Source: Pycnopodia helianthoides
Taxonomy: Eukaryota > Echinodermata > Asteroidea > Forcipulatida > Asteriidae
Direction of reading: 5' to 3'
DNA length: 64,000 bases
Assembly (NCBI GenBank): GCA_032158295.1
Contig: CM063249.1
Location: forward strand, 5,905,195 to 5,969,194
Positions 14,211 to 63,544 of this stretch are shown in pieces. The notes below the pieces were generated by a model that ran no database searches, was not told where the DNA came from, and saw nothing but the letters and a program-made list of their open reading frames with translations. Position 1 is the stretch's first letter. Each line of letters starts with the position of its first letter. The translations under genes and the position numbers were made by a program.

Positions 14211-14256
14211 CCTTATTTCTAAGTGAAGATCGTTTGTCCGTACTTTACGTTTTAAA

Positions 14257-16085
14257 GGAACTTCGACTTATTTGCATAATACAATTTTGGGTAATTGTTA
14301 ACTTGATTGTTACTCATTAATCAAATCGAAATTACGTATTGTTCTTTATGTTTCCTTTACACCGTAATGTGCAATGGAATTCACTTTAAACACTCTTGTT
14401 GTTTTCTCCTAATTGAAACAGTTTTACTTTTTTGTATGCGTGTATTGCTCCCTGTTGATAACGTTCAAATACATTCTAGCAAAAATCCCCTCCCCTATTT
14501 TAAAGCCCCTCCCCTATATTAAAGCCCTTCCCCTATTTCAAAGCCCTCCCCTCTCTTAAAACAAGGCAAATGACTCTTAGATATCTTCGATTCTGCTTCG
14601 TTGATGGTTTTTAAGGCTTTTCCAAACCTCGGCTTAGGCTCCGTGTACGGTTCCGGGCTTCATTTGATGTTAGAAACACCGTACAAAATTGTACACTGCT
14701 CCAAAATTGGTAACGGAGCCGGAGCCGGAGCCAGAGCCTAAAGCCGAAGTTTCGAAAAGGCCCCGAATAAACTCAGCAGTTGAACTCAAAATGGCCACGA
14801 AGCCAAAGCTTGTATCGGTACCAAAGAAAAAAACATGGTGAAAGAAGACTTTAGCAATTAACTTCTGAAACTTATAGATGTCGATCAGGCATCGATTTAT
14901 GTTCAATCCATCCGTAAAATATCGGTAATTGGGACAGATATAAATTGCTGATTAATTTGATTTTATAGTGTAAAACTTTCAAGTAAACATTCAGCGACAA
15001 AATGAGAACAAAATCGGCATTTTTCGAGCTTAGATCGTAAATTGCTTGACCATTCTCCTGTATTTAACAATTTGGATTACATATTGTTCATGAGAGATGT
15101 TTAAACTTGCTGACATAGACCTTCTCCAGAACACCGGGTACTTATGCAATTATTAACGCTTAAACTTGATATGGGTTTAAGATTAGGAGATTAAAAACAA
15201 TTTTCGGGTGTAATTAACACAGCTGGTTTGATTGATAACATTTAAATCCTCTTTTATTTTATCAAATATTATCTGTTTTGTTTTTCTGTATCAACAGAAA
15301 CTTAACAGATGTGTTCTTGTTATCTTTGCAAGATAATTGTAATGACGTCATTTGATAATCGAATCTCCTTTGGTCACACATTGAACACACTTTTATACTA
15401 CAGAGAGGTTGGTATTAATGAAAATATCCCGTTAAAGGCCCTGTACACTATTGGTGAGATCGAAAAACACAATGTTCACAGATTCACACATAACTTACAT
15501 GATTTAAAGTAAGTAATGGTAGAAAGGGTTCCTTAAAATATTTCTGCCTAAAATGCTATCGTTTCTGAGAAACGAGTAAAACAATAGTAATTATCGCGCG
15601 CGATAATTTGAAAAAACAGAAAACACATAAGATCTCTTTTCACTATTTTCTCGTGACCTCGATGACCAATTGAGCTCAAACTTTCACAGGTTTGTTTGTT
15701 CATGCATATGTTTAATCACACAAAATGTGGACACTGATTTTGAGCCGTTACCAAAAGTGTACAATACCTTTTAAGTATAAATGATTTCCGTCAATCAATC
15801 GATTCGCCAGTTTCTATGAAACATTTAATTAGTAATTTGTAGTCAATATTTACTGTTATGTTTTGATTGATAAGCTCATTTATCGATTATTTAAACAACA
15901 GTTTTAGTCGATATTATAATGATTAAACAAGTTGGTTAATACATATTGGTTTATTCTCAAAAGCAACTTTGAATTTCAAATCTAAATAACCACACGTAGT
16001 ATCCACAGACAAACAATCTTTGGACATAAATTGCAGTCCACATAACATTGAGATACCTCAAAGATGATGCTTGACAAGGACACAA
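14257..16085. other. Intergenic region between the second and third carboxypeptidase genes
   Basis: Contains no recognisable gene. A 149-bp inverted-repeat element lies at 14614-14762 (ends CTTTTCCAAACC and CTTTTCGAAAC, GC-rich GGAGCC interior). A TTAA-flanked MITE lies at 15432-15774. The rest is AT-rich and unassigned. Control elements of the second gene must lie here, but only a weak TTTAAAA at 14250-14256 was seen. Confidence 0.6.
15432..15774 (+). mobile_element. TTAA-flanked MITE, third family
   Basis: Termini are TTAAAGGCCCTGTACACTAT and the inverted GTGTACAATACCTTTTAA, with TTAA at each end. The interior shares CACTATTTTCTCGTGACC and CTCAAACTTTCACAGGTTTG with the 390-bp family, and has a perfect palindrome ATTATCGCGCGCGATAAT at about 15594-15611. 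Confidence 0.8.
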
Positions 16086-16091
16086 TTTATT
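16086..16091 (-). terminator. Candidate polyadenylation signal of the third carboxypeptidase gene
   Basis: AATAAA on the minus strand (TTTATT on plus), about 200 bp downstream of the stop codon at 16294-16296. Distance and orientation fit a 3' UTR of ordinary length. Confidence 0.45.
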
Positions 16092-16293
16092 TTATGTACG
16101 TCACAAACAATACCTTGCACAGAAAATATAAACCATTACCAAGCCGTATTGTATGATTGACCCATCCCTGAATTCAATTGTTCTAAGAACTTTCAAAATA
16201 CCTGGTGTTTGTTTGTTTGTTTGTTGTTGTTTTTGTTTACGCCAAACCACTATTTAAACACTGAGTAATGTTCGACTTTCTCATGATAGTTTT

Positions 16294-19200
16294 TTAGACG
16301 ATGAAGTTGTTTCCGATAGCCTTAACGGCTTCGAGGGTCTCGACGGCACTGTCCTTGATGAATCTAGCCGGGATCAGGAAACCATAGCTCCCGGTATCTC
16401 TGAGCTCTGGGGCGAATGAGTAAGGAATACCAGCTACTCCATAAGCCCAGTCAGCACTGGAGCCCGCTGCTTCATCTAGAACGAGAGAAAACAAACCGCT
16501 TATTGTAGTTAAGGGAATATATTTTGAGGCAAAGTTTGGTAACAAAATGTCAATGCAATCAGAAATGAATATTGAATTCTATAAATCTGTTTTCTAATTT
16601 AAAAAAAATCATCTTTTTGAAAGAGTGACTGTAAAGGGACGAATAATAGATCCAATTGACTGGGAAGGGGAGACATTCTAGCCGACGACCTCAACTCTAT
16701 AGTTAAATCTGTCAACAATGTATCAATGCCACTCGCGTATTATCAAAAACCCGTATACATTATCACATCACACACAACTTCATTGGTTCCAGTCTAACAA
16801 AGAGTTAACTTCACAATGATATTGCCCTCATGGAAAGCTATGAATTACAGGGCACCACCGTACCTTAAGGAACTTCTCTCACCTTTAAACTCAAAGTCGC
16901 AATCTTCGATCTACGAACAAACTTCTCCTATTAACTGTCCCTAAAACAACCGCTTCCTATGGTGATCGTGCCTTTTCAGTATCTACTCCAAAACTCTGAA
17001 ACTCTTTACCATTAATATCCAAGCTATAGAATCTCTGGACATTTTCAAAAACATGCTTAAAACAAAATGTCGGCATTGTTTACGAATGACTCTATATATT
17101 GTGCTTATCCACTTGTTTAACTTACATATAATATTAGCAATGCTTCCTGTGGTGTATTTGGTTCCGTATACTGACGTCAGTGCTGCAACAGCCTTATCAG
17201 CTAGCGCTTTCTGCACACGGGAAAAAAAAACAATTACCAAACAATTTATGTCTGATGGTTCTTTCTTGAGATGGTCAAATTAAATATGAGGAGAGCTCCA
17301 TATCTTTGTGGACGGCCAATTTAGTCCTGAGGATTGTTGTTTGACTTTACTTGAACACAGAAAGCCCCCAATAACCCCTCCAAACCCTTCACGACACGTG
17401 GCGTCTCGTGGCTTCATGGTCTAGGGTTTCGGATCAGCAGAGTGTGGGTTCGAGTCCCTGTCTTGACACTAATTGTGTCCTCTATAGCGAGGCACTTGAC
17501 CATTATGGCTTCGTCTTTCGGATGGGACATTAGGTCCCGTGCTTTGTGTAATGCTCGTTGACGAATCCAGTTACACTTATTGCTCAGACTGAGAAGGGGT
17601 TTAGCCCCGGTGTTTCTGGCAGTGGCTGTTGAGTGCTCCATCACCTTGTAAACCCTCAAGGTGCTACATAAATGGGTCTCATAATTCAAAAACATTAAAA
17701 ACACGTCATATTATGATTTTTTTCTTAATAAGCATTTTGATACGCGCGTAGATAATAAGATATTGTTATTATTTTACAATACAATAAATGTTGATAATTG
17801 TCAAGATATTTTCTACACAAGTTTTATAACAACCGGGACTTTATTCTGATCAAAATGGCCGCTTATTGTACAGATCGAGGAAATCGTACTTAACCTATCG
17901 GCCTCACCTGGTCTGCGTAATTAGCAGGGAGTCTCTTGGTGTAACCCCAGGGCACCATCCAGTATTGACTGTAGCAATGGAAGTCAACAAACACCTGTAC
18001 ATTCCTCAGTGTAAGGATGTAGTCGGTGACGGTCTTAACCTCGACTTCAGTATGGGCTGCGGTACCACAGTACGTATCGGAGCATGGGAAGTTGCTGGCA
18101 CCAGTCTCTGTGAAGTCAGAGTGGGGAAAAATGGCTGATTAATCATAAGCCATGTCAGAATTATTGGTTTGGCCGAGGCATTGTATACGGAACTTCTTGT
18201 TCTGATTACCGCTGCAGCAGCTAGCGACCACAGCCAAGTGCTCTGGACTTTGCAGGAGCAACAGCGACCTCTATTGTTTTCAATGGATGAGTTATTTTGT
18301 TTACTACACTGGCGCCATCATCTACAAATGTTTTTAACAAGTTCCTTGTGAAACCACTGGATTCAGTTTAATCTGTCATGTTGAATCTCCGAATCGTAAA
18401 GCGCATGAGAAACAAAATCGCTGGTGAGGATAAGCCACAGTTTTCAAAACGTTAGTTTAGACGTTCCCAAACCACGGCAACGGTCTATAGGACTGTGGCT
18501 TCAGCTATCTGTCGGGCTCAGTTTGATATTGCGTGCTTTCAGTTATTGGATTCAAAATGGCGGATGTAGCCTGAGCCACAGCCAATAAAAAAGAGTCGAC
18601 GATCCCCTGTTCGGATATCCCTTGAATATTTCACAGAGAGTTGTAAACTTACCGCACCAGTGGTGGTCCCAGTTTCTGTTGGGGTCCGTTCCAACACAGG
18701 CGGAGAGATAGGTTGGGGATCGGGTCTTACGCCACATGCGATCCTTGAGAAAGAAATCATAATAATAGTAGTCATTTATTGACGGAAGCCTGGTTATCAA
18801 TGTACAAACAACGTACTTAAAGGAACATTACAGAATTGGTAAGAAAAAAACTTGTAAAATGTACATTTTTATCACAGATTTACATAAAACTTACACGGTC
18901 TAATGATGATAGAAAACATCCCTTGAAATATTTTTGTCCGAAATTCCATATTTGATGAGAAATGAATAAAACTAATTTTCCGATTTGAATTTATCGCTCA
19001 GTGAGCGTTTTATTCATTTGTTGAATCTATATGATTTCATGCAAATGTGTAATCGGTTTTTCACTATTTTCTCGTGACCCAGATGGCCGATCGATCTCAA
19101 ACTTCTACAGGTTTGTCAGTTTATGTATATGGTGGATTACATAAAGTGCTTAATACACTGCCAGCAACTGTTTGGTTAGCAAAAATCAATTCTGTAATGT

Positions 19201-22200
19201 TCCTTTAACGGAGCCTTTTCAAAGCTCGGTTTTTTGATATCCCAAAAATGTAAAATGCTACAGTTCTATTCAAACTTACACCACTCCATGTGTACTCGTA
19301 GCCATCAGGGTTGAACATGGGTAGGATGTACCAATCGATCTGGTCCAGGAGGGTTGTTATGGTGGAATCGCTGCCGTAGCCCTGAACCATCTACAGAAAT
19401 AATTAATGATGAACGAGATGAATAAAAAAAGGCTTAATTTTACTCACATCAGTGTAACTAGAGTAAACTGTAAATATCGTATTGATTGTAATCACACTTA
19501 AATAATATCATTTATTACAAATGGCTTAACGACACATTTTCATTTTGGGATGGGGGGGTGGGGGGAAGAAGACCAAGTAGGGGCGAAGAATTTGGGAGCT
19601 TTAATGTTTCGAACCATTCAAGTGCAATTTTTGTCGATCTCATTTGTGTGTGTGAGCGTGCCTACCCGTTGAAACCGAGGACTTTAACAAAAGGGATCCC
19701 GGTGTTTTGACCGAGGGAGAACGTCCTCGCTTCGCTTTCTTGTACAAAACCAATGGGGACGTCGCAAAAAAAAAAACCAAAAAACAAAAAACAAGTCCAA
19801 ACAATGGGAGAACAAAGAGAAGTCCTCGATTTACGGTATTCACAAACAGGTGTGATTTCAAATTTCACTACCTTATGGAGACCGAGAACAAAACAGAAAA
19901 GGGGTAACAAAGGGTCTCCATAGGGAATTTCTAAAAACTGGGTTGCTCCACAAGGAATGTTGTGTACAAAGTCTATGGGAGGTTCTTAACTATACAGGGA
20001 CAAAAGAAAGCACAAAAGATGTATCCACAGGGATGCAAAAAATAGAATGGGTGTGTGTGTGGGGGGGTGTAGAGGGTGGGGCATTGGTTCTGAGCGGAGG
20101 GGGGGGGGCTCCCACCCCGCTCCCCCCTCTAGTAACGCCATCGGTTATTAAAATCTGTTTGCAAACATCAAACTTACCATGTCGACCATGGCGAGCATTG
20201 TGGCTGGTGACAGCCACTCGCGGGAGTGCACGCCACTCTCCAACCAGATAATGGGCTTGTTGAAGCCACGTTTGCCGATCTACAATAATTCGGGGAAAAA
20301 TATATTAAACCATAATTCAGGAATGAATGTTAGAAATGATCAGGGTTGATTTTTTAAGACGAGACGACATCGGAGGACAGAGAGGCTTTTTGTCACGGTT
20401 TCAGGATTTGAATTAAAGGGGATGCGATATTCAGTATTCAGAAAGGCACATCTACACTCAATGTAACATGAACTGTCAACTTAATTTGTTAAACATTTCA
20501 ATGCAAGCTGTTCTAGTACACATTACAAAAAAACACGGTTTTGGTGATAACAAATATTCCCTTTCTCTCCGGAGAAAGGATCATTTGGTCTACATTTATG
20601 CAGCAGACATGCAACAACCGTCGAGTGACCAAGACTTCAGTTTACACGGTATTTATTATGACGTCATACCTTAAGGAGCTTAATTTGTCTTCCTTCGTAT
20701 GATGTCCCAAGAAGCTCCTCAGTAACAATGCTGCTGTACTGGCTGGCTATGTCGCTCACCCATTGGTTGATCTGAAAGAAATTCGTCCAATAGGAATTAA
20801 CGAAACAACTCAACACTGGTTCCCTGACGTTCCCTATATAGTCTCCACCCACATGTCTATATTATGCGTTTACCGTGGACATTTTAAGAGTACACAGACC
20901 CACAAGCACACTTCTGTTACAACTTTGTTCTTCGCCCAGCCAGGCTGGGAATCGAACCCCCGTTAGTGCACAAACAGAACTTAAGTCAGGTTCCACCACT
21001 GCTGTTGCTGCTTGCACTGGGGAAGTTGTCACGTTCGCTGGTATCCTTACCTCATCATATGTGTGATAGCTGTCATAATCAAATGCAGCAGAAGTCGACA
21101 CCTCGGATCTCTGTTTCTGCTCTTCGATCAACTGCTCGACATTGTCGATGAAGACCTCAGTCTGGATACCGTGATCACTAAGAATTGCCAGAACCTCGCT
21201 CTGGACATTTGGTCCAACCATGAAGTCGATCGGCTTACCAGCGTGACGTGGCTCAGCCCAGAAGTCAAGCTAAAGAAACACAACCAACACTTACCATTAC
21301 TAAAGTTATAGAAATAAAACCAACACTTTAACTACCACACCACTATTACTGAAACTGTCGATTCCTTCAAACTGGACACTCGTCACTTATGTCTTTTTTA
21401 AACGTTTTTTTCCCTGTTCTCTCCTAACCATTAATCTTGTTTAAAATTTTTCGCTGACTGTTAAGACATTGAAAATACCTGGCCCGATTTCCTGCTCACC
21501 GCAAAACTCTACGCTTATGGCATCTTGTAAACCACATGAATCTACGGGCTGTAAGCGCAGAATTTTGAGAATTTGGGCCCAGGTAATACCCAAATGAATT
21601 CTTTTTGTAATATATTTTTAAAGGAAACACAAGGTAAGGCATATGATGAATTCATAAATCATTATGTTAAAATATCTCCACGTCCATTGTATATCCAAGG
21701 CTATAGCTTTTGTCTAAAAAACTGTAGAGTTAAATTTTCTGATTGATAATTATTGTATTTGTATTTGTAAATAATGATGAATTCTCCTTTGAATCTGGTA
21801 GTATACAGTTGCACTGAAGTTTGAAATTAGAAAAAAAATGACACTATTTAAAAGTGTCATCTTTTTTGTGGCGCATTTATACATTTTTAATCGTATTAGT
21901 CGTAAATGTTGAAATGAGAAGAATTATTGTCACTAAGTTTGCGAATTTCATACTTTTTAGTCCTTGTTGAAAAGTTTGAGTTGATAAGAGTTAGGCCTAA
22001 TAACATTCTGTGATGCATTCTAAACCCTTTTTAAGGCCTATTTGCAACCAAATGAGAAGAATCGCTGTCATTATTTTGTGGTGCATTTTGTACCTTTCCT
22101 TCGAGAAGAGTCCTAAGGAATCCCATTTTACGAACTTCGTCATCGTCACGTGGGTTTACACGAAACACCTTGAAGCTGTGTAGGAAAGAATGAAGCATTT

Positions 22201-33092: not shown

Positions 33093-33460
33093 TCAGAGCT
33101 CTATTCTAGGATCATAGTCCTTGGGAAGTCCAGTGCAGTTCCTGAGTTTAAGCGCCATGGAAACAGTCTTCAAGGAGAGATCGACCATCTCTTTCATTTC
33201 CTCCGTGTAAGGGTCGAAGGTCGATGGACTTTTGGGCTTCCCTGACCTCTTGAACTTTCCCAGGGGGCTGCTGAGGACACACAGAAGCCTCTCCTCGTCC
33301 ACTGGTACTTGAAGAAACTTCACCACTCTTTTAAGATTATCATAAAGGTTTGTTTGTAAATCTTCGTAGTAAACCACGTGCACTCTTTTGCTGTACTGGA
33401 TGAAATTCACGGCAATGTTGGCCCAAGTCCTGGATTTGCCCGTTACAAAAGCCGTCCATT
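33093..33460 (-). CDS. WSCD: WSCD-type gene, last coding exon
   Basis: The acceptor AG at 33461-33462 starts AA TGG, completing a Glu codon from the previous exon. The exon encodes EWTAFVTGKSRTW, then VHVVYYEDLQTNLYDNLKRV, EERLLCVL, FKRSGKPKSP and DPYTEEM, ending at TGA 33093-33095. These blocks are the conserved C-terminal third of WSCD sulfotransferases. Confidence 0.93.
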
Positions 33461-36400
33461 CTGCGTGGGATGATGCAACAAAATATAATTGAAATACAAT
33501 TTTTCCAACTGTCATTGATTCTTGAGAAATAAAATCAGAATATGAGAGAATTTCAGGTGTAAAAAAATAAAATAAAAAATGGCTGAAGCCATCGGACACT
33601 TTATCAAGTGTCCGTTTTTAATCAAACAGTCAGTACTCCGTTAACTTTGTTTTCATCTAAAAAGTTCCTCAACTACACCTAGACCCAAATAGCAAGCCAA
33701 CTGTCTTGTTACCATCATTCCCCCCCCCCCCACTAAAAAAACAATCTATTAATGACCAGCTCTCCCGGACTTTTGGCGTAAGAATTGTACAGCAATAACT
33801 TAGCCTTAGACCTAATGGCCACAACAGGGTGAAACGAACCATGTGTTATAATAATAAGATTGCTTCTTCTCTAGACTTGTACATGGCCTGCACTGCCCTG
33901 GTTTTTATTTGGAAAACTGATTATTTTGATAATTGTTTGCGCGATTTAAAAGTGATTGTGTTCTCCACAAAAAAAAGAAGTATTACACGCTAATATCAAA
34001 ACGGACACTTGAAAAGTATCCGAGGGTGTAGGCGTGTGATCTTGTTTTGTGACGGTGTCACGCAGGGTTTTAATTGTGCCTAACGTTCGACGACACACAA
34101 TACGTCCAAACACTGTTGTTGTGGATAGAAGTTACCATTGACCCAACACGGAACGCTTCGACCTTTCTTTACAGGTGGCACTCTGCGTTTTAAAGTGAAA
34201 AACAATGAACCCTGATCACATTGGCTGGAAATTAAAGTCACACCTATTGTGCTCAAGTTGTTACACTGTAAGGTGTGACGTCATTCTCACGCAGACGTAA
34301 ACGTTTCAACTTCATTTAAAAGACAGGTTTAAGAGACCTTTTTGTGGATGCAACTCACACTATTAATTATAATCGATAACAGTTTTAACGGCTACATACT
34401 ATACTGAAAGCAATTTGATGCCTAGTCTTTGGTCAAGACTTCACCAGCATTTTTCTTTCATTTTCTATAACATTTTACAGGAAGACACATTGACATCATT
34501 CATATTCATTGCCATCGATTTGCCTCTGGGCCTCACCTGTCCCCTTTGTGTACTGAGCTTCCGGTGCAAAGCCAACATGGCCGCCGAACTTCCGGTTGTG
34601 TTCGGAGATGATGGCTTTGTAGGGATTCCTGATGATGAGGATTGCGGCTTCGAATTGGCGGACGTGTTTCTCATCGAAGCGGTGTGTTTTGACGCCTATC
34701 GTGTTCCCCTTTGTCCATTTCTCCCGCTCTCCCATGAACCCTGCAGTGCATTGCAGAGCCAAGTGAAAAACAAACATGCGATAGTTAATGTTCAATGACT
34801 GTGACGTTCCAGGGGGTTTGGATATAAGTTGATGAGCGATAAGTACGGGGCACGGGATTGACACAAGTGCCTTATTTTTAAGGCAGGGTAAAGCAGCATT
34901 CGCGTTGTACGCATTAAACGAGGTAACTTTATCGGTATGGTACGATTGTTAATTCAATAATGCCGAAGTTAACAGAGTTGTTTCTTTCCACTTTTGCATG
35001 TACAATGTCTCCTCAATGCAAAATAATGTACTTTTACTACATTTTACTTTAAATAACGAACACTTTTGTATAAAGTTAACAACCAAATAATGTCACTGTT
35101 CTTAAAATACTACAGAGCATCATGTTTGTTTCAAAGACCCCCCTTTTCGAAAAAAACTTCTGATAATAAATTAAACTAAAAAAACAAAAAAACGACACTT
35201 TCCACTGAACAGCATTTTTATGGCGTTTAAAAAACCGTCGTCATTCTAATTTTCATTTGTAATTAGCAAGTCTAACTTTGCTAGTTATATATTGAGCCTG
35301 GGTGACACATGCAGTGTGAAGCGAACCAGGATGGCCAAGTTTGCACAAGCACCATTTTTGTTATCGACTAGTGACTGGTGCTAACTGGTACTCATGTGTT
35401 TGGGTACCGGGCAATATTAACATCCATCCAGTTCACAAATGGTCCTCCTGCAAACTTGGTCATCTCTAACCCTCCTACTCTCAGTGACTCTTGGCAACAT
35501 TTTCCAGTGAGTTGACCAACCATTTGAAACCATTCGACTGCCAAGGTTGTGTACGGTGGCGCAACTGTGCGCAGAACTAATTCTGTGTACTGTGTACAAT
35601 GCATTCCCTCATGGTATCATATTGCAGGCTAGCATAGTTTATCTATCATTAAAAAACCACAGTGAATGGTATTGAATGGTAGACAGCAAGTAGATTTACC
35701 AACCTTGTTTAAAGAGAACACCGTCATTATAAAAACTACCCGTGTAGACACCAGTTGCCCTCTCTATAAGGTAACGCACCCAAGTATTACCGGAACCAGG
35801 GAAACTTGATATTGCCACCAACGGCATGGTACCATCAGGTTTCAGAGTGATGTTACCATTGCAACGTGCGTCTAGAATTAGAAAAGAGATCGGGACCAGT
35901 GAAAAATTAATATTTAATAGCATGATATCATCAGGATTCAAAGTGTGTCCGCCACAGTAATATATGTACCTTGGTGTCGCCAAGTTCAAAAAATCATTAC
36001 TAAGTATCATTCTCAAGTCTTTTTGCTTACGTTTGACGTGAAACTGTGCCAACCAGGCCACATAAACGGCGCCATTCATACCGCCCTCACTAAATGGACA
36101 CATAATTACAACAAGGCCTATAGACCTTTTTTTTGCAACGTCACATCCCAGTTTTTTGCCAACCAAGGTTGGAAAACTATGGGAAGCCATAAATGCAAAG
36201 CAAAAACGGATAGCCATATTTTGTACATTAATACACAAATGTTCAAAAATAGTGTCGAATTTGTTGGAAACAAAGCAAACAATCATAAGATGTAAAAAAA
36301 TATATATATATATATTGAAAGTTTGCAGAAATGTTGAATTTGGTCACAACATCTCTACCTGCGATTGAATGTTTTGCTAACATTCGGCCCTCCATGCCAA

Positions 36401-39400
36401 CCAGCGCGGTTTGTTGATCAACAAAAGAAAGGTCTATATACGGCAACTCCCAAACTTCTGCATGAGATATGCTCGGGCAGCATCAGCTGTTCTTCGACTG
36501 TGTTTTTTCGACGGGAGGAGGAGGGGGCGGTGGGGGCGGTGGGGGGGGGGGCGTCAAATTGCCTACAACATGTTTGAAAATTTGCCTGCAACATTTAGTA
36601 CTATTATTTACCGTCTGCCGCTGTTTGGTACACTGACAATGCACTGTCCCCTCCACAGTAGTACTTCTCGTCTCCTCGGCATGGAATGTTACACTCTCCC
36701 AATGGTAACACTTTCTGCATATGGTACTCCGGGGTGAAGGAACCACAGTGACACTCTGTTCCTGATCCTAGCGCAGCTAGAGGAAACTTCTGTTTAGAAA
36801 CCAAGAAACAAGAAGAGGATGATTAAGACAATGATACAAAACATGCACGAGTTATGGGACTGATCCTGTTCCTGATCCTAACGCAGCTAGAGGAAACTTC
36901 TGTTTAGAAACCAAGAAACAAGAAGAGGATGATTAAGACAATGATACAAAACATGCACGAGTTATGGGACTGATCCTGTTCCTGATCCTAACGCAGCCAG
37001 AGGAAACTTCTGTTTAGAAACCAAGAAACAAGAAGAGGATGATTAAGATAAGGATACAAAACATGCACGAGTTATGGGACTGATCCTGTTCCTGATCCTA
37101 GCGCAGCTAGAGGAAACTTCTGTTTAGAAACCAAGAAACAAGAAGAGGATGATTAAGATAAGGATACAAAACATGCACGAGTTATGGGACTGATCCTGTT
37201 CCTGATCCTAGCGCAGCTAGAGGAAACTTCTGTTTAGAAACCAAGAAACAAGAAGAGGATGATTAAGATAAGGATACAAAACATGCACGAGTTATGGGAC
37301 TGATCCTGTTCCTGATCCTAACGCAGCTAGAGGAAACTTCTGTTTAGAAACCAAGAAACAAGAAGAGGATGATTAAGATAAGGATACAAAACATGCACGA
37401 GTTATGGGACTGATCCTGTTCCTGATCCTAGCGCAGCTAGAGGAAACTTCTGTTTAGAAACCAAGAAACAAGAAGAGGATGATTAAGATAAGGATACAAA
37501 ACATGCACGAGTTATGGGACTGATCCTGTTCCTGATCCTAACGCAGCTAGAGGAAACTTCTGTTTAGAAACCAAGAAACAAGAAGAGGATGATTAAGACA
37601 AGGATACAAAACATGCACGAGTTATGGGACTGATCCTGTTCCTGATCCCAACGCAGCTAGAGGAAACTTCTGTTTAGAAACCAAGAAACAAGAAGAGGAT
37701 GATTAAGATAAGGATACAAAACATGCACGAGTTATGGGACTGATCCTGTTCCTGATCCCAACGCAGCTAGAGGAAACTTCTGTTTAGAAACCAAGAAACA
37801 AGAAGAGGATGACTAAGATAAGGATACAAAACATGCACGAGTTATGGGACTGATCCTGTTCCTGATCCCAACGCAGCTAGAGGAAACTTCTGTTTAGAAA
37901 CCAAGAAACAAGAAGAGGATGACTAAGATAAGGATACAAAACATGCACGAGTTATGGGACAATCAATAACTTTTTACTAATAAAGACATCCAACTTTTAC
38001 GAGAAAATTTCAGCTGAATAAGTGTGTCTTGTTGATGAAGTACCGGATTGTTTGCCTTTTGTGGATCTGCGACAATTACTTAACACAAAAAAACTAGATT
38101 CATCCCCGCTAGATGGTTACTATACTGGTAGGCGTACACATTATTTTGTCTTTAATTGCTTAATGCGATCTTGCATGTGTGTACGTGTAGGCCTAAAGCA
38201 GGGGTCAGTTTTTATTGTTGCTGTTTAGGTTTTATATTATTGTGGTTTGACATTGTTTCGGTCTTGATGTTGCTTTTATTTGTTTATTATGGGCAGGTTT
38301 ACACCTGTGGTGATAGTGATTTATTTGACGGGTCTAACCTGGACCTTCACGCCTTGAATGTCTTGGTATGTTCGGTGGGGGTTCACGTATAGTACATATT
38401 TTGTTTGTGTGTTGCGTCTTCTTGCAATCTGTTGCTGTCCTTCCTTTCTTTGATGTGATTCATGTTTTTACGTACACGTTTGTTCATTCTCTCTTGTTTT
38501 GTCGAACAATGGCAATGAAAAACTACAATACGATTGCGTTTATAAACATGAGCCCTACATGGAGAGGGGACACTGTACATGGAGGGCGCCCTATAGCTGG
38601 CCGGCACACTGATTGATTGGTTGCTTCAGGCACACCATAATCGTGCACCATTCGTTAAAATGTTATGCCTCGCAGTCCCTTCTTTCAGTTGTCATCTATC
38701 GCGTAAGGCATGTATAGCTTCACCAGAACTACAGAACGAGGTATGAATGTGTTTAGTTTACAGGTGGGGTGATAAAGTGGCCTTATCTAAAATGCTCATT
38801 TTTAGAACGAGAATGAATTACGAGAGGTAGTGCAAGGCATATGCAGCTAGTGTACCCAGACGACCCAGCCGAATTGGACCACTGCATTCAACATCTCAAG
38901 CTTAAAAACCACACTCGGCTTATTCATTACTACAGCCACTCGACACTGGAGAGCTGTTGTAAACGCGTTCTGAATAATGCTACAAATTTAATATTTAATT
39001 GATATCTGGGGAGAGTGGAATGAATAACACAACAGTCTGGTTTGATTGTAATGCAATGATCATTTGTAAATAAAGCCGTTTGTTAAAGGAACATTACAGA
39101 ATTGGTAATTGTAAAATATACTTTTGATCACAGATTTACATAAAACTTACACGGTCTAATGATGATGATAGTATAAAACATCCCTTGAAATATTTCTGTC
39201 TGAAATGCCATATTTGATGAGAAATTAATAAACTATTTTTCCGATTTGAGTTTATCGCTCAGTGAGCGTTTTATTCGTTTGTTGAACCTATATGATTTCA
39301 TGCAAATGTGTAATCGGTTTTTCACTATTTTCTTGTGACCCAGATATCCGATCGATCTCAAACTTCTACAGGTTTGTCAGTTTATGTATATGGTGGATTA

Positions 39401-42400
39401 CATAAAGTGCTTACACTGCCAGCAACTGTTTTGTTAGCAAAAACCAATTCTGTAATGTTCCTTTAACCTAGCTTTGGGTCCCACAATTCTTATTAACTTT
39501 TCCACTCGTATTTTCGGCCTGAGGGAATATTTAACAACAGTAACCTAAAATAAATAATATTTCTTTTTCGGATTATCTTGTTTTACAAATCGTAACCCGC
39601 TAGCCTTTTCTGTTTCCCTGTTGCACTTGAAAGTTCAGAGCCGATAAAAAATAACATCAGTGTCTACAAAATGAACTATAGTAAACACCGATTATATTTT
39701 TAAAACTAGTTAATTGAATGAAAGCGCTTTCCCCACAAAAAAAATAGCGCAGTACCAAATTCGTTTAAATGAAAAAAATGTACACAGACCGCAAATGAGA
39801 AAAAACCTTCCTACGCTCCGCCGGATTGTTATTATCTTCACAGATAAACTCATAACCCGATTGAGTTGAGACATTGAAGAATTGCAGACTTTAAAATTAA
39901 TAGATAACTTTCATTACTGAAATTACAGGGGAAAACATGAGCTTGTAAGCCTCCTTCCCATCTTTGATGTTGTTCTTCGCATTCACAATCTGATCATCAA
40001 TCGTATTATCTGATTGATATACTTTCACTTTCGTCGCACAGGGACGTATAGTTAAAAAAGAAAAGAAAAGGAAAAAAATCCTGGCTAATCCCGCCAGTCT
40101 GCGTCAATATTTGATCCAGGGTCATTCCCGCGGGATTTGGGGGGAGAACCAGGGCGCTGTTGACACAGCCATTCAAAGCAGACGTTTTCGTCAAGGGGCG
40201 CTTTTTTTTTCTAGAGTTGTCACAGTCTTAAAATCTGCCGGTAAGAATTTGCCTGATTAAAATGCAAGGATCAGAAGTATATCCCCGCAGGTTTGGGAAT
40301 CCCGAGTTTTGATGGAATAATGGATAAAGAGGAAGGGACAGTTTGTAAGAAAACTCCCTGAGCTTCTGAAAGGTTTTTTATCATCTCCTCTGAGTACTGA
40401 AGGGTCTCTATTCATCAATTGTTGATGTTGCTAATGGGATGAGGCATTCGTTTACATCATCAACGTATAACACTACGCTTAAAAAAAATCAAAAATTATT
40501 ATATTTGAAAAGTGACCGATGTACTTTAATTTTACCTCCTCACAAACAACTGAACAATGAACAGTTTAGGGGTCAACTAACTATCCAAGGTCATAATTAT
40601 AGAATTGCGACGAAAATGGGCTTTTAAAGCCTTCATTAGAACAACCCCAAGTGCTTTAAATAATGGATTCCATCATTTTGAACTCTTTTCCATCGCAGGC
40701 ATTTTTTTTAATAATACACGAGCTACTGATCAATTTTCTCTTCGGAGGCATGGACATGGGACTTTATCAATTGAAACCAAAATAAGCCGAAATAGCGAAT
40801 GTCATAAATGATGCATGTCATCGTCTCGAAAGCTTTTCTCCACCTTCCGATGCATTTACTTATTGAAAGAGTAGAAGGGTCAACGTCTCGTGAGAGAAGC
40901 GACGCGAATGACTCGAGAATTAAAATGAAACATGCATTTCAAAATGATTGTAGTCGATAACCAATAAACAGTACTTATTAAAAATACAGCAGATACCTGC
41001 AGTTGCAAATTAACAGCATATTGGAAGACATGACTCTGTTATTGATTACACTCCTGAATCAAGATATGTTATGCTGTACCTCAAGTTAAAGGCAGGATAT
41101 ACTTTTGGTAATTGTCAAAGACCAGTATCCTCACTGTGGTGTATCCAAACAAATGCATAAAATAACAAACCTATGAGCTGAAGTGGGCTCAAGTGGTTAT
41201 CGAGGTTGCAAGAAAATAATGGGGAAAAAACACCCTTGTTGCATAGAATGGTGTGCTTTCAAATGCCAGAGAAAGTCTTCATGACAGAAGCCTTTCCTAG
41301 ATGTACTTTGCCTGGTCATGTAATTCTAACAGTAATTACGCTGGGTAAAAACAAAAAAAAACAATTGCCGGCAATGACTGCAGCATAAAGACTATTTGGT
41401 GCAAGTTCAGTTCACATGTATTAATTGCCAGTCAGTACTTCAAAAAATTATAAGTTACCTGTTCCAAACATGCACTGATGCATGACGTAATGGTCAACTT
41501 GTCATCGACGGTGAAGAAGCCATCGGGGAATATGGACTGTTTCCACGGTGTAATGGGCCGCGGAAGACACGCTCTGAATCCATCGGCTAGTCCGGTGTCT
41601 AAAGCCGCAGTTTGCTGGGCTATTATGCAAAATAAATGAAAGACATAAAACAGTTTTTGTAAACGGAAACAACAATTGAAAGAAAGAGAGAGAGAGAAGA
41701 CAATTCAAATTGATTGGCAATACTGTTGTAATGATGCTTGCTACGCCATCGGTTGATAAAACAGTCATTATATTTTAAGAGCATTCTTAACACCAACATC
41801 AGGTACCATTGCTCTGTAGTAATGCACATAATTACTGCTTATGAACAATCATGGTAATAACTATGACAGGACACTTTTGAATGTACTGAGAGCACAATGG
41901 AACCATATTGCCACTCGTGTTGCCATACAGAGGGAGTTTTCGTGATCGTAACCAATAACTGTTTCGTTCCATTGGATGTAGTGATTGGCCAATGACAAAT
42001 TCAAAGAAACAGTTAGGCCTATTGGCTACCACTGCGAAAACGCAATCCAGGAAGACTCAAGGAATTCAACCAGAATGTATGGTGTTTAAGGAGAACCGTT
42101 AGATCAGAATGTATGGTGTTTAAGGAGAACCGTTAGATCAGAATGTATGGTGTTTAAGGAGAACCGTTAGATCAGAATGTATGGTGTATAAAGGAGAACC
42201 GTTAGATCTGGGCCCAATTTCATGGCTCTGCTTACCGCCGAATTCTGCGCTTGCGGTGACCATTCTCCGCTTACTGTTCAAGCGCCGAATTTCTGCGCTA
42301 GCTGTGTAAGCGTAGAATGCCTAGTAACGTGGAGTACGCACGCGCACAAGCCGAAAATCTCCGCTAACCCGTGAATTACGCTTGACGTAAGCGCGGAATT

Positions 42401-45400
42401 CCCTGCTTCCGCAAGCGCCGATTCTTTGCTTACGGTAAGCAGAGCCATGAAATTGGGCCTGAATGTATGGTGTTTAAGGAGAACCGTTAGATCAGAATGT
42501 ATGGTGTTTAAGGAGAACCGTTAGATCAGAATGTATGGTGTATATAAGGAGAACCGTTAGATCTGGGCCCAATTTCATAGCTCTGCTTACCGCCGAATTC
42601 CGCGCTTGCGGTGACCATTCTCCGCTTACTGTTCAAGCGCCGAATTTCTGCGCTTAGCTGTGTAAGCGTAGAATGCCTAGTAACGTAGAGTACGCACGCG
42701 CACAAGCCGAAATTCCCCGCTAACCCGTGAAATACGCTTGACGTAAGCGCGGAATTCTCTGCTTCCGCAAGCGCCGATTCTTTGCTTACGGTAAGCAGAG
42801 CCATGAAATTGGGCCCAGAAGTGTTTAAGGAGAACCGTTAGATCAGAATGTATGGTGTATAAGGATAACCGTTAGATCAGAATGTATGGTGTACAAGGAG
42901 AACCGTAAAATCAGAATTTATGGTGTATAAGGAGAACCGTTAGGAAATCAACATTGCAATGTCTGGCTTATTGAGTCGCCGTATTGTTCAAACGCGGATG
43001 CTAAAAGGAAATTTACATCCACTAAGTGCCGGAAGAACCCCGGGTTTATGATGGATTTACAAGCCTAAGCTCTATCTGGGGTGAGGGGAGGGGGAAGGGG
43101 GTCGTTTCTGTATCTTCCTTTGATATCAGACAGTCCATGTGATCATAGTCCACGGTCTCTGATATATTGATGCAGCCTGAGGGTTCAAACTGTCAGAAAG
43201 TGCAGTCTTTCCCCGCAGGAACCCGAAAAGTGATTTAGACGTCGTTCGTCTTTTTTTTATTATTGGGAATCAAATGTGGCGTACGGAACACACTAATTAA
43301 ATTAATGAGGGAGCTATGCTTGAAACGAGACCACATAATTGATTGGTGGTAAATGTATCCATGCGTTTCCATTGATTTTCTTCTGATGACGTCATAACCA
43401 CGTAAAATTACGTCCAGACTGGACAAGACGAACTAGGACCTTGAAAGACGAAACCGTAGTATAACGGTAGTGCGGGTACCAGCACATTGTTCAGCCTGGG
43501 TCTAAAAGTAATGCAATTACTCTAGCAATGCATCTCAAGCAGGTTGCCAAATGAGTACAGCAAAACAAGAACGTATAAAGATGTCAACATATGCCTCAAT
43601 GCAGATTTGCATTACAAAAGCATTCGACGTTTTCAAGAACAAGATTGTTTTCTAGTAATAGTCCAAAGTAATTTTGAACAACCTATACTTGCGGTGAAGC
43701 TTATCATTTTAAATTCTGCAACATAAAGCGCTGAAACACGAGCTTCTGGGTTGCCTGAGCTGATCCAGAATGGTTATAGCGGCGTTCTACTGTTCCTGTA
43801 TTCGTTAAAGCGGCGTTCTACGGTTCTTGTAATCGTTATAGCGGCGTTATACGGTTCCGTTTTTGTTGTAGCGGCGTTCTACTGTTCAAGTGTTCGTTAT
43901 CCCGGCGTTCTACTGTTCCATTCATCGTTATAGAGGCGTTCTACTGTTCCATTATTTGTTTTAGCGGCGTTCTACTGTTTGCTTACAATTTATTCAAATC
44001 AAGCTGAGGCTGAAATTGGATGAAAAACTGAGGTCGGCCCTTTCCGTAAGGTAAGAATCTATATTCGTTATTGATACTGCGCACCGGAGACATGTAAAGA
44101 TGGCGACGGCATGGTTAGGATCTATATGATATTTCCTGTGCATCTTGGTTACAAATCAATACATGCCGGGGGGGGTGGTTGGTTAACGTCTAGGTCTTGT
44201 TCATCAGCATTTCAATGTTTTCTAGTTATTTATCCGATCAATCCATGCCATTGGTTTTCATAATCGGAGCGACATTTTGCAGCGGAAGTTACCCGTGTTG
44301 GGTATCAGCACTGACCGTACAACAATACATGCAAGTTCAGAAATCATCGTATACATGAATACAGGTCGTGTCATGCCTATTTTATACTACCAAGGGTATG
44401 TAATAATAAGGCACTATTTTGGTCATGTTTATAACTGAGCAAGTTCGAGTGGGCGACTAGACTAACCAGAAACAGTGTGACAGTGTGTGACTTAGCTCTT
44501 GAATTGACTAGATCGACCGAGTTCCAGTGCATGGTCGAGCTAGCCAATCTCCCTGTGCTCTATGGTTTCTGGTAAGTCTAGTTTATACTCTAGTCGCCCA
44601 CCCGAACTTGCTCACTGCTGCTTCTAGTATAAGCTTACTCTCTTTGAATCAAGATAATGTGCAGTGCTGCTGCTTCTGTCATATGTAATATATTTGAGTA
44701 AAGATAAGGTACAGCAAAGCTGCTGTTCCTGTTAACCTCTTGTTTTGACCTAAACCACGATTTATCACTTAGTCTTGTGGCATGTTGATTCATGACCAAC
44801 TCTTTCAGCCACTTACAGAATTTTAGTTTTAAGGACAGACATAAATAATTTAAACACCCCAGTATGGTATGTTATTACAAAACGAAAAACCAGAGGGATG
44901 GTGAATCACTAGTTTGAATCCATTTGATCCGGGAACCAGATCAATCAAGGAACCCGAACTAACAAGTCCGATACTGATCCAATTAAGGGTTTAATATCCT
45001 AGAACCGGAACCTGGCTCGGCCCCGATCTCGTGTTAAGCTACATTTGAAGGGGGGGGGGGCGTTCTAACTCCTTCTAATAGACCCTTCCCATGAAATATG
45101 CAAATTGGACATCGCGCGTGCGCACTCTCCCTACTGGTTGGCAAAATGAGTGAACATGCGCCTTTTTGCATGGGACTGATGGTGGCGTGGCGCACACGCG
45201 TTTGTGCGTCTGCCTTGTGCACAACTCTACGGCGTTTGCCAACCAGTAGCGTCTGTACGCATGCGTGAATGTAATTTACATATTTCATGGGAAGGGTCTA
45301 TTCTACCTCCATGTTACAATCATGGAGGTTACAACTAAGTTGTAGATTTTAAAAGGAGGGTCATTTTATGCTGCCGTTGATTACCGGTACCAAAACGATA

Positions 45401-60400: not shown

Positions 60401-62655
60401 CTGGGCTAATATTATGACCCGGAATCTGTGTCAAAAACGACCCAGAAAATGGATAACAAATGAAGCAGAATCCGAGCTCAAACCCTTTTTTTAATAAAAC
60501 TATTTCCCAGGTCACTCTGACAGGCTCCATGGGATACGTAATCCGGGTCCATTTTGAACCGGGAGTGTTTTAGAGAGTAGGATCATTAAAGGCACTGGAC
60601 ACTAGGCCCTCTATTGGTAATTACTCAAAATAATTGTTAAAGGAACATTACAGAATTGGTTTTGCTAACAAAACAGTTGCTGGCAGTGTAAGCACTTTAT
60701 GTAATCTACCATATACATAAACTGACAAACCTGTAGAAGTTTGAGATCGATCGGCCATCTGGGTCACGAGAAAATAGTAAAAAACCGATTACACATTTGC
60801 ATGAAATCATATAGATTCAACAAATGAATGAAACGCTCACTGAGCGATAAACTCCAATCGGAAAATTAGTTTATTCATTTCTCATCAAATATGGCATTTC
60901 AGACGGAAATATTTCAAGGGATGTTTTCTACTACCATCATCATTAGACCGTGTAAGTTTTATGTAAATCTGTAATCAAAAGTATATTTTACAAGTTTTTT
61001 TCTTACCAGTTCTGTAATGTTCCTTTAACATAAAAACTTACTTGGTAACGAGCAATGGAGAGCTATTGATAGTATAAAACATTGTGAGAAAGGGCTCCCT
61101 CTGAAGTAACGTAGTTTTTGAGAAAGAAGTAATTTCTCAGTAAAATATTTGAATTGATTTTGAGACCTCACGCGTGAGGTCTCGAAATCAAGCATCTGAA
61201 AGCACACAATTTCGTGTGACAAGGGTGTTTTTTCTAGTACCATTATTATCTCGCAACTTCGACGAGCAGTTGAGTTCAAATTTTCACAGGTTTGTTATTT
61301 TGTGCAAATGTTGAGATACACCAAGTGAGAAGACTGGTCTTTGACAATTACCAAATGTGTCCAGTGTCTTTAACAAGCTGAGAAAATACAACAGAGTTAA
61401 AGACATCATCATTAAACACGGCCTCCCTCTGACCGTTAAGACTCACATGGCAATTCTCATTCCAGTCCCTGGAACACAGCATGAATGAAATCTCCAACAA
61501 AACATCACAAGATCCAATTGAAAATACAGTTGTTCAATAAAATGAACTGCATTGATATTTATAACAAGGGATAACCGCGGAGAGCCACAACATCACAGGC
61601 CAAACATTACAACCTCACAGAACATAGTACTAATAATGTGAATCCCAGTTGAATTCTAGTAAAACCCACCATTCGAAATAAACATGACAAATACCTATAA
61701 TGCATTTGCTGTTTAGTCAGCAAATATTCCCTCCCTCTATGCAAATATTAAATGCGTGATGTAGTCAGTATAAAATCCCAGATTACAGCATAAAAGCTTT
61801 CCAGTTGCCTTGATGTGAAGGTGTTCGAGTGGTAAAAATCTGAAGCATTAAGTCCGCCTGTTATTCTATGCCTCAACAGACACAGTCTCCTGGGCTTGAA
61901 ATCTTACACGATGTCATACAATTCACCGTCATTGACCGTCAACGAGTAAGGGGGGGAAAGAGGTATCCTCAACACTTAGTGGTAAAGGATCATTCTATCA
62001 TTCTGGTTTATGTTTATCTGCTTAAGTTAAGCAGATCTATTTTCAAGACTCTGCATACAGTGAAAAAAATCAAGTTTATTATGCTTCCTGTATAGGTCTG
62101 AATTTGTTATATGGACCCTACTACAGCTGATTTTACAATGACGATTGATAAAACTATAGCCTATTGCTCAAACACGAATCAATTCATCAATCAATCGATC
62201 AATCAATCGATCAGTAAATCAACCAATCACTGATTCGATCAATCAATCAACCAATCACTCAATAATTCAAATAATAAACCAATAAATCACGAACAATGTA
62301 AAAAAAAAAAAAAAATGAGGTGTAGCATGGTTAACAAGTTTTCCCTTTATACAAAGCTAGTATGCCCAGTAAGGCTCTATGAAGTTGAGGGGGATGATGA
62401 TGATGATGATGATGATGACCGCATATGACGGTCTTTATCGATAGTTTACACTCACCTTGCTGCCCACCACCATTACTATGTCCGTTGTCTACAAGTATTT
62501 GATACATTGAAAGGTACGGTGCGCCCCCACACGTCTCTGTTGTGTTGCCTGCACATGTTGCATTGCATAAGCTGTCCCTCACCGGCTGATTGTGGTAGAT
62601 GCGTTTACCGCAGTAACACTCACTATGAAACTCCAAACCCGCGTAGTAACTACCT
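33093..62655 (-). CDS. WSCD: WSCD-type protein: WSC domains plus sulfotransferase, 3' six exons
   Basis: Six visible exons in transcript order: 62456-62655, 41459-41619, 36612-36789, 35704-35871, 34537-34740, 33093-33460. They total 1279 bp with matching phases. They encode the second half of one WSC domain (ECYCG, CNATC, CGGAP), a second WSC domain with eight cysteines split over two exons, then a sulfotransferase domain. The sulfotransferase has the PAPS 5'-phosphosulfate loop SFPGSGNTWVRYLIE and a 3'-phosphate motif (IIRNPYKAIISEHNRK). The C-terminus ends GLPKDYDPRIEL. This is the layout of animal WSCD1/WSCD2, type II Golgi proteins for which sialate O-sulfotransferase activity has been reported; function here is inferred. 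About 150 N-terminal residues, including the membrane anchor and start of the first WSC domain, lie beyond 64000. The gene spans more than 30 kb, mostly repeat-filled introns. Whether it is closer to WSCD1 or WSCD2 cannot be told. Confidence 0.92.
33592..34023. mobile_element. MITE with TCGGACACTT ends in last intron of the WSCD-type gene
   Basis: Terminal inverted repeats are TCGGACACTTTATCAAGTGT and TCGGATACTTTTCAAGTGTC (second in reverse complement), each followed by CCGTTTT. Each arm also has a short internal hairpin (GGACACTT and AAGTGTCC). The element is 432 bp with no coding capacity. No clear target duplication was seen. It starts 131 bp past the last exon. Confidence 0.75.
34537..34740 (-). 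CDS. WSCD: WSCD-type gene, sulfotransferase 3'-phosphate exon
   Basis: Encodes FMGEREKWTKGNTIGVKTHR, FEAAILIIRNPYKAIISEHN and GHVGFAPEAQYTKGT. The Arg and Ser of IIRNPYKAIIS fit the RxxxxxxxS 3'-phosphate-binding pattern of PAPS-dependent enzymes. The donor GTGAGG is at 34535-34536. Confidence 0.93.
35704..35871 (-). CDS. WSCD: WSCD-type gene, PAPS loop exon
   Basis: Encodes ARCNGNITLKPDGTMPLVAI, SSFPGSGNTWVRYLIERATG and VYTGSFYNDGVLFKQ. The donor that keeps frame is GTTGGT at 35702-35703; a nearby GTAAAT five bases further on would shift the frame. The acceptor is at 35872-35873. Confidence 0.92.
36515..36553 (+). repeat. G-rich tract beside a WSC exon donor
   Basis: GGAGGAGGAGGGGGCGGTGG followed by more G runs, ending in an 11-G stretch. 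It is on the template strand of the WSCD-type gene, about 60 bp into the intron after the exon at 36612-36789. It could form a quadruplex. Confidence 0.75.
36612..36789 (-). CDS. WSCD: WSCD-type gene, second half of second WSC domain
   Basis: Encodes KFPLAALGSGTECHCG, HMQKVLPLGECNIPCRGDEK and YYCGGDSALSVYQTAAD: five of the eight WSC cysteines. It starts in phase 0 after AACAG and ends one base into a codon completed at 35871. The first 36 bases and the acceptor are part of the 11-copy array at 36754-37960. Confidence 0.93.
36754..37960 (-). repeat. 110-bp tandem array duplicating a splice acceptor and exon start, 11 copies
   Basis: Units repeat every 110 bp with few differences (for example CTAGCGCAG or CTAACGCAG). 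In the gene's direction each unit holds an intron tail (CTCTTCTTGTTTCTTGG), the acceptor CTAAACAG and the first 36 coding bases of the WSC exon (KFPLAALGSGT). Acceptors fall at 36790, 36900, 37010 and so on to 37890. Only the last one transcribed, at 36790, joins the full exon. The true exon thus starts inside the first unit. Confidence 0.95.
37961..41085. other. Intron of the WSCD-type gene between the two halves of WSC domain 2
   Basis: No gene recognised. Contains the TTAA MITE at 39083-39466 and poly-A and poly-T runs. Open frames on the plus strand at 38022-38616 lack recognisable motifs. Confidence 0.5.
39083..39466 (+). mobile_element. TTAA-flanked MITE, copy 5
   Basis: Full length (384 bp) with TTAA at both ends and the AGGAACATTACAG termini. 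It is in an intron of the WSCD-type gene. Confidence 0.9.
41086..41400 (-). mobile_element. Truncated TTAA-type MITE related to 60586-61373
   Basis: Starts TTAAAGGCAGGATATACTTT; next comes TGGTAATTGTCAAAGACCAG, then AACAAACCTATGAGCTGAAG. This is the reverse of the 3' half of the element at 60586. The far end is not clear; the right boundary is approximate. Confidence 0.55.
41459..41619 (-). CDS. WSCD: WSCD-type gene, linker and first half of second WSC domain
   Basis: Encodes QQTAALDTGLADGFRACLPR followed by PITPWKQSIFPDGFFTVDDK and LTITSCISACLEQ. The spacing of Cys in GFRAC, TSC and SAC matches the start of WSC domains. It is entered one base into a codon from the exon at 62456, which fits, and ends in phase 0 with donor GTAACT. 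Confidence 0.88.
42210..42460. mobile_element. MITE with GGGCCCAATTTCAT ends, inside minisatellite, copy A
   Basis: Terminal inverted repeats are GGGCCCAATTTCATGGCTCT and the complement of AGAGCCATGAAATTGGGCC, continuing through GCTTACCG. The 250-bp interior is GC-rich with repeated AAGCGC motifs. Confidence 0.85.
42565..42816. mobile_element. MITE with GGGCCCAATTTCAT ends, inside minisatellite, copy B
   Basis: Nearly identical to 42210-42460 along its length and with the same left junction (GTTAGATCT). It ends with an intact GGGCCC. Confidence 0.85.
43778..43981 (+). repeat. Tandem repeat, 31-bp unit, about 7 copies
   Basis: The unit is approximately AGCGGCGTTCTACTGTTC followed by a variable 13-base stretch ending TCGTTAT. 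Copies have diverged in the second part. Not coding. Confidence 0.85.
44436..44614. mobile_element. Fold-back element with TGAGCAAGTTCG ends
   Basis: Terminal inverted repeats are TGAGCAAGTTCGAGTGGGCG and TGAGCAAGTTCGGGTGGGCG (second in reverse complement), extending through ACTAGA. The element is 179 bp. No clear target duplication was identified. Confidence 0.8.
45079..45300 (+). mobile_element. Fold-back MITE (TAGACCCTTCCCATG ends), copy 2
   Basis: A 222-bp element with near-perfect terminal inverted repeats TAGACCCTTCCCATGAAATA and its complement at the right end. It is the better preserved relative of 6104-6330. The interior holds GTTGGCAAA and CCAACCAGTAGCG segments that also pair. Confidence 0.88.
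46724..47117 (-). mobile_element. TTAA-flanked MITE, copy 6
   Basis: Full length (394 bp), reverse orientation, TTAA at both ends. The terminus AGGAACATTACATAATTG has one change from the consensus. Confidence 0.9.
47556..47702 (+). repeat. Tandem repeat, 40-bp unit, about 4 copies
   Basis: The unit is TTGGTGATCACAATCGCAAT followed by CCTTCCTTGATTTAAAGCAT, nearly identical between copies. Not coding. Confidence 0.88.
47932..48339 (-). pseudogene. LINE reverse transcriptase tail remnant
   Basis: A minus-strand frame contains SRSGPSLWNSLPIRLRKETS then SHFKNEHKTHLL. The LWNSLP plus FK..LKTHLL order is the signature of the C-terminal tail of non-LTR reverse transcriptases. The catalytic domain is absent, so this is a 5'-truncated relic. 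Confidence 0.65.
54335..54522. mobile_element. MITE with GTGGCCCTGAAGG ends
   Basis: A 188-bp element with 28-bp terminal inverted repeats (GTGGCCCTGAAGGGACATCG and GTGGCCCTGAAGGTACATCG, then AACATATA). The interior repeats CGTGAATATT and ATATTTACG, so it is itself nearly self-complementary. Confidence 0.85.
59269..59352. mobile_element. Possible short fold-back element
   Basis: GGGCCTGTTTTTCTAAATCG on the left and the complement of GATAAACTCG-type sequence ending AAACAGCCCT on the right. The arms match only in part, so this is a weak call. Confidence 0.35.
59982..60340 (+). repeat. Direct duplication, about 178-bp unit, 2 copies
   Basis: CCGTGAAGTATTTGGGGAAC, GATTACCTAGAATCACCAAT and GTTACCAGCGAG recur about 178 bp apart with small differences. 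Not coding. Confidence 0.85.
60586..61373 (+). mobile_element. TTAA-flanked MITE, second family, split by a nested MITE
   Basis: Ends are TTAAAGGCACTGGACACTA and the inverted GTGTCCAGTGTCTTTAA. Without the insertion at 60637-61028 it would be about 396 bp. It carries the palindrome GACCTCACGCGTGAGGTC at 61165-61182. It is preceded and followed by TTAA, as in the nested family. Confidence 0.85.
60637..61028 (-). mobile_element. TTAA-flanked MITE, copy 7, nested
   Basis: Full-length copy inserted into the element at 60586-61373. The host reads ATTG-TTAA before and TTAA-CATAAAA after the insertion. This fits duplication of a single TTAA on insertion, the piggyBac pattern. Confidence 0.92.
62160..62290 (+). 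repeat. ATCA-type tetranucleotide repeat
   Basis: Imperfect runs of ATCA, with ATCAATCAATCGATCAATCA as the purest part, followed by a poly-A run at about 62300. Confidence 0.85.
62392..62418 (+). repeat. GAT trinucleotide microsatellite
   Basis: Nine consecutive GAT triplets in the intron just after the donor of the exon at 62456-62655. If intron is retained on the minus strand it would read as a His run. Confidence 0.8.
62456..62655 (-). CDS. WSCD: WSCD-type gene, second half of first WSC domain
   Basis: Encodes GSYYAGLEFHSECYCGKRIY, then SLCNATCAGNTTETCGGAPY, LSMYQ and a Ser/Gly/Gln-rich linker (HSNGGGQQ). It provides the last five cysteines of a WSC domain. The acceptor is either 62656-62657 or two bases inside it; the phase of the missing upstream exon would decide. 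The donor GTGAGT is at 62454-62455. Confidence 0.9.
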
Positions 62656-63375: not shown

Positions 63376-63544
63376 GTTGTTTTCATCTTAAACATTTTCT
63401 TCTTCTAGCCCCTTTGCAAGAGTGGCTTTTAGCCTTGTTCGGGGGCAGACTTGCATAAAACAAATCTATAGGCATTGGAGTTGTCGACAGCGAGGACTCT
63501 TACAGGTTATGACGTCACAAAGTAACCTTTTTGTGTACCGGAGT

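What the first reader, a model, noticed from the sequence alone, without database searches (positions are those of the whole stretch)
36754..37960. Eleven tandem copies of a gene's own 3' splice acceptor and exon start
A 110-bp unit containing the intron tail, the acceptor CTAAACAG and the first 36 coding bases of a WSC exon is repeated 11 times directly upstream of that exon. The spliceosome meets ten decoy acceptors (37890 down to 36900) before the one that leads to the full exon at 36790. Entry at a decoy would translate KFPLAALGSGTGSVP and then hit TAA, so decoy use should give a truncated product or nonsense-mediated decay. Array length could thus tune output of this gene, and the near identity of units suggests recent expansion.
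Basis: partly seen in the sequence, partly recalled or inferred. Interest (0 to 1): 0.75.

Follow-up and report, generated by a model that had tools for sequence, protein, structure and literature searches.

The report
Repeated splice site in sulfotransferase gene
A stretch of 110 bases that spans the end of an intron and the start of the next exon is repeated eleven times in a row in what looks like a sea-star sulfotransferase gene; it resembles a known kind of repeat (a 'mirage' minisatellite) that seems not to disturb splicing, and there is no evidence yet that it regulates the gene.

Summary
The array is real: eleven head-to-tail 110-bp units at 37960-36756, minus strand, 95-100% identical over the 105 bases they share. 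Each holds the intron tail, an intact 3' splice acceptor and the first 34 (not 36) coding bases of the next exon. The host is a WSC-domain plus sulfotransferase gene; its partial model is 92% identical to an Asterias amurensis protein, so the window is probably from a related sea star. Joined to the donor at 41458-41457, the last acceptor gives the full exon; each of the ten others gives KFPLAALGSGTGSVP and a stop.

Such repeats over intron-exon boundaries are already described in amphioxus as 'mirages'; [quoted passage not shown] I file this as a mirage minisatellite, a new member of a known kind. Most likely the last acceptor is the one used, because only it makes a short exon closed by a nearby donor, and the upstream units leave with the intron. 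That is inferred; no RNA data were available. Control of the gene by array length is not excluded but has no support here.

The parts
36756..37960 (-). Array of 11 units of 110 bp, each with intron tail, 3' splice acceptor and 34 nt of exon
36751..36860 (-). Terminal (11th) unit, joined to the full exon; its last 5 bases are the exon's own continuation
36861..37960 (-). Ten upstream (decoy) units; each would give KFPLAALGSGTGSVP then a stop if spliced in
36612..36789 (-). Exon with the second half of the second WSC domain, 178 nt; donor GTAAAT follows
41459..41619 (-). Upstream exon with the first half of the second WSC domain, 161 nt, ends in phase 0 before GTAACT
62456..62655 (-). Exon with the second half of the first WSC domain
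35704..35871 (-). Exon, start of the sulfotransferase part
34537..34740 (-). Exon, sulfotransferase part
33093..33460 (-). Last coding exon, ends with TGA

Best explanation
It is a 'mirage' type minisatellite. One duplication copied about 105 bp across the 3' splice site of this intron, apparently with five extra bases (GATCA) at the join, and unequal exchange or slippage then multiplied it. Because each unit carries the same acceptor and an exon start with the same amino acids, the array can grow or shrink without changing the protein: whichever unit lies next to the exon supplies the true acceptor. Most likely the spliceosome mainly uses the terminal acceptor, since only there is a 178-nt exon closed by a donor (exon definition). 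The upstream units have no good donor and would be removed with the intron. Shown: the anatomy, the reading frames, the identical joins, the lack of a good donor in the decoy units. Inferred: the history, which acceptor is used, and neutrality.
For: The ten unit-to-unit joins share the same 20 bases, which fits one founding duplication. Adjacent units are more alike than in shuffled order: 13 differences against a mean of 22.2, p = 0.003. The best donor-like site in each of the 10 decoy units matches 5 of 9 consensus positions, against 7 to 9 of 9 for the five donors of the gene model; the scoring is my own simple one. In 10 of 10 aligned homologs (of 112 listed) the protein continues through the junction with no decoy peptide; 9 have no gap there and P0020 lacks one residue. 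Those are other species, and whether they have an array is not known. The gene model is open across its six exons. The window is rich in tandem arrays: 20 by my count cover 8.6% of it. Amphioxus precedents with the same anatomy are reported not to disturb splicing.
Against: No transcript was seen, so use of the terminal acceptor is not shown. The last 33 intron bases and first 11 exon bases are identical in 11 of 11 units, so nothing close to the site favours the last one, and a rule of 'first acceptor transcribed wins' would favour a decoy. Three of three variable columns in the exon part are silent leucine changes, slightly more constraint than neutrality predicts (chance 0.06 counting transitions only, 0.03 counting all changes; three sites only, taken as independent). 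For PGBD5 the claim of accurate splicing is the authors' inference, and a gene annotation there reads two of the repeats as an exon, without transcript support.
Confidence: 0.78

Rival explanations
1. Decoy array as a rheostat: upstream acceptors are used at an appreciable rate, giving truncated product or nonsense-mediated decay, and array length sets the output of the gene.
For: Each of the ten decoys carries the acceptor sequence of the true exon and leads in frame to an early stop. In 8 of 10 decoys the acceptor is the only AG of the unit before the exon part; units 1 and 2 have one more. In those two units, the farthest from the exon, the best branch-point candidate CTTAATC reads CTTAGTC (the consensus is recalled), which could weaken them.
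Against: No RNA evidence. Published mirages are reported not to give aberrant mRNA. Decoy exons would be 288 to 1278 nt long (arithmetic), which exon definition disfavours (principle recalled).
Confidence: 0.12
2. Assembly artefact: the number of copies, or the array itself, was created by mis-assembly of reads.
For: Units are nearly identical, and no reads were available. One amphioxus globin mirage was aberrantly assembled in a draft genome (PMC3087553), and for lancelet PGBD5 two sequences disagree on copy number, 2 against 7 and 3 against 6 (PMC3902484).
Against: Units differ in an ordered way: units 1-3, units 5, 7 and 8, and units 10-11 share variants, and neighbours are alike. There are unlike flanks on both sides.
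Confidence: 0.06
3. Intron-gain intermediate: a unit in the array becomes a new small exon, as proposed for amphioxus globin mirages.
For: Published model for mirages (PMC3087553 passages).
Against: No donor-like site better than 5 of 9 lies in any of the 10 decoy units, and the frame is closed by a stop.
Confidence: 0.03

Closest known systems
Mirage minisatellites of amphioxus (Adh3; globins BflGb6 and BflGb9; troponin C; similar repeats in PGBD5)
   Same: Tandem copies of an intron-exon boundary, many with splice signals kept, next to the true exon; [quoted passage not shown]
   Different: Sea-star-like host instead of amphioxus; 11 units, against 6 and 3 in the two BflGb6 haplotypes; 95-100% identity here against 81-100% in BflGb6; transcripts untested here
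Intron gain by tandem genomic duplication (potato RdRp gene)
   Same: Tandem duplication inside a gene, discussed as a source of new introns
   Different: No sign here of a new intron or mini-exon. Seen only as title and start of abstract in a search listing
Sialate:O-sulfotransferase / WSCD family (host gene)
   Same: WSC domains and a sulfotransferase domain; 92% identity to the Asterias amurensis protein
   Different: I could not look at the same intron in relatives, so whether they share the array is unknown

Membership tests
Mirage minisatellite | Tandem repeat whose unit spans an intron-exon boundary | tested here: met
   the boundary itself rests on the gene model and homologs, not on a transcript
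Mirage minisatellite | Repeat units carry splice signals (reported for many, not all, published units) | tested here: met
   11 of 11 units keep the same 33 intron and 11 exon bases around the acceptor
Mirage minisatellite | Turnover typical of tandem repeats (local homogenisation) | tested here: met
   neighbouring units alike, p = 0.003
Mirage minisatellite | Length instability between alleles or in somatic cells | not testable with these tools
   one sequence only
Mirage minisatellite | Normal splicing of the mRNA despite the copies (reported property) | not testable with these tools
   no RNA data
WSCD / sialate:O-sulfotransferase gene | WSC domains followed by a sulfotransferase domain | tested here: met
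   Pfam WSC 9.1e-23, two stretches; Sulfotransfer_1 6.4e-07, above its cut-off; Sulfotransfer_3 below its cut-off; homologs
WSCD / sialate:O-sulfotransferase gene | Sulfotransferase activity on sialic acid | not testable with these tools
   the name is taken from database labels

The most novel reading that the evidence does not exclude
A splice-acceptor minisatellite acts as a copy-number rheostat: each added unit gives the spliceosome one more nonproductive acceptor, so alleles with more units make less sulfotransferase.
Probability: 0.1. Interest if true: 0.75.

Novelty: new member of a known kind. Interest (0 to 1): 0.32.

Why it matters
If the terminal acceptor is chosen although ten copies come first, this is a clean natural test of exon definition: the sites are the same from 33 bases before to 11 bases after the splice point and differ mainly in position. 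It would also extend mirages from amphioxus to echinoderms. Three searches of the open-access library by terms listed no echinoderm case; that library leaves out most subscription papers, and other wording was not tried.

Tried and rejected
RNA structure in the array: three units (37520-37191) fold little better than shuffles, z -1.24, 14 of 100 shuffles folding at least as well. Rfam at gathering thresholds and the tRNA scan of the window: nothing. Solved structures: sequence matches to the WSC part of Kremen 1 chains and weak matches to sulfotransferases, not followed up. Cassette-exon use of a unit: rejected for lack of a donor. A donor four bases further on at 35700: rejected, it brings an early stop. 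The first mirage paper (Canestro and others 2002) is not held; I know it only through citing papers. The home genome could not be searched: the genome search was busy at 6 of 6 tries. Paper searches that listed nothing: (5 of 10 searches). The 'lastAGbefore' column printed was a faulty calculation and is not used; one search replaces it. For the array count I merged the overlapping rows by hand and left out two rows with periods 3 and 4.

Full report
Observation. Tandem Repeats Finder gives 36756-37960, period 110, 11.0 copies, 98% matches and no indels. On the minus strand, 11 units start at 37960 and then every 110 bases to 36860. Six columns vary in the 105 bases shared by the units: three in the intron part, three in the exon part. 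Mean pairwise identity is 97.9%.

Host gene. Exons at 62655-62456, 41619-41459, 36789-36612, 35871-35704, 34740-34537 and 33460-33093 join into one open frame of 425 residues. The exon ends were placed by hand from splice consensus and homology. The 5' part of the gene is not in the model. Pfam finds WSC (9.1e-23, two stretches) and Sulfotransfer_1 (6.4e-07); Sulfotransfer_3 stays below its cut-off. The best of 112 homologs is a sialate:O-sulfotransferase 2-like protein of Asterias amurensis, 92% identical over the whole model; Patiria miniata (75%) and Acanthaster planci (73%) follow. The window is therefore most likely from a sea star related to Asterias; the species is not settled.

Junctions. 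The upstream exon ends in phase 0 at 41459. Joined to the terminal acceptor it gives ...LEQKFPLAALGSGTECHCG. The 10 homologs that I aligned, of 112, continue through this place with no decoy peptide; 9 have no gap in the stretch and P0020 lacks one residue. Joined to any of the ten other acceptors the exon gives ...KFPLAALGSGTGSVP and a stop.

Signals. The last 33 intron bases and first 11 exon bases are identical in 11 of 11 units. In 9 of 11 units the acceptor is the only AG before the exon part; units 1 and 2 have one more, where CTTAATC reads CTTAGTC. That motif is also the best branch-point candidate by the recalled vertebrate consensus. In each of the 10 decoy units the best donor-like site scores 5 of 9, against 7 to 9 for the five donors of the gene model. 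So decoys can act as acceptors on paper but are unlikely to make small exons. As the sites are alike, selection among them must come largely from position: transcription order favours the first, exon definition favours the last. Both rules are established knowledge, recalled and not tested here.

History. The ten unit joins are identical over 20 bases, so the array probably grew from one duplication. Neighbours are more alike than in shuffled order (13 against 22.2 differences, p = 0.003), as expected from local exchange. The three variable exon columns are silent, and 11 of 11 units encode KFPLAALGSGT (chance of three silent changes 0.06 or 0.03 by two ways of counting). This would follow if units pass through the functional last position from time to time, but three sites are too few to lean on.

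Background. The window holds 20 arrays by my merged count, covering 8.6% of it; of these only this one overlaps one of the 11 boundaries of the gene model. Random placement of founder units puts at least one on a boundary of this gene in 16% of runs. Carboxypeptidase exons lie elsewhere in the window, so the true number of boundaries is higher and the chance larger.

Known precedent. In amphioxus globin genes BflGb6 and BflGb9, tandem repeats span intron-exon boundaries; they had been reported before in Adh3 and named mirages. BflGb6 has 6 and 3 units in two haplotypes, with 150-160 bp units and 81-100% identity. The authors write that Adh3 data and their RT-PCR suggest no interference with regular splicing, that the copies could nevertheless serve as cryptic sites, and that somatic instability was detected at Adh3 (PMC3087553, passages read). 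A later paper says the Adh and troponin C mirages do not generate aberrant mRNAs and describes 60- and 108-bp repeats over splice sites in lancelet PGBD5, whose copy number differs between two sequences; there a gene annotation reads two repeats as an exon, which the authors set aside for want of transcript support (PMC3902484, passages read). The original Adh paper was not held.

Verdict. The sequence finding is correct. It fits the mirage kind, here apparently in a sea star; allele instability and normal splicing, two reported properties of mirages, could not be tested. The regulatory reading is open but has no positive evidence, and the published cases point the other way.

Noticed in passing
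window 42071-42943: A 34-bp minisatellite is interrupted by two copies of an element with 27-31 nt inverted ends (TCTGGGCCCAATTTCATGGCTCTGCTTACCG); it looks like a small inverted-repeat transposon that inserted once and was then duplicated with the array as a 356-bp unit (the history is inferred).
   Followed up: partly
window 10350-21269, minus strand: Of 10 open frames scanned, four match carboxypeptidase families above cut-off: Peptidase_M14 at 10350-10643 and 16294-16578, Propep_M14 at 12665-12943 and 20862-21269. This suggests at least two carboxypeptidase genes in tandem.
   Followed up: partly
P0004: A second Asterias amurensis protein, labelled isoform X2, is 68% identical to the model and lacks the first WSC domain. 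Its contig has the same length as that of P0001, so a neighbouring paralogue is likely.
   Followed up: no
window 63543-64000: A 19-bp minisatellite with 24 copies runs to the end of the window.
   Followed up: no
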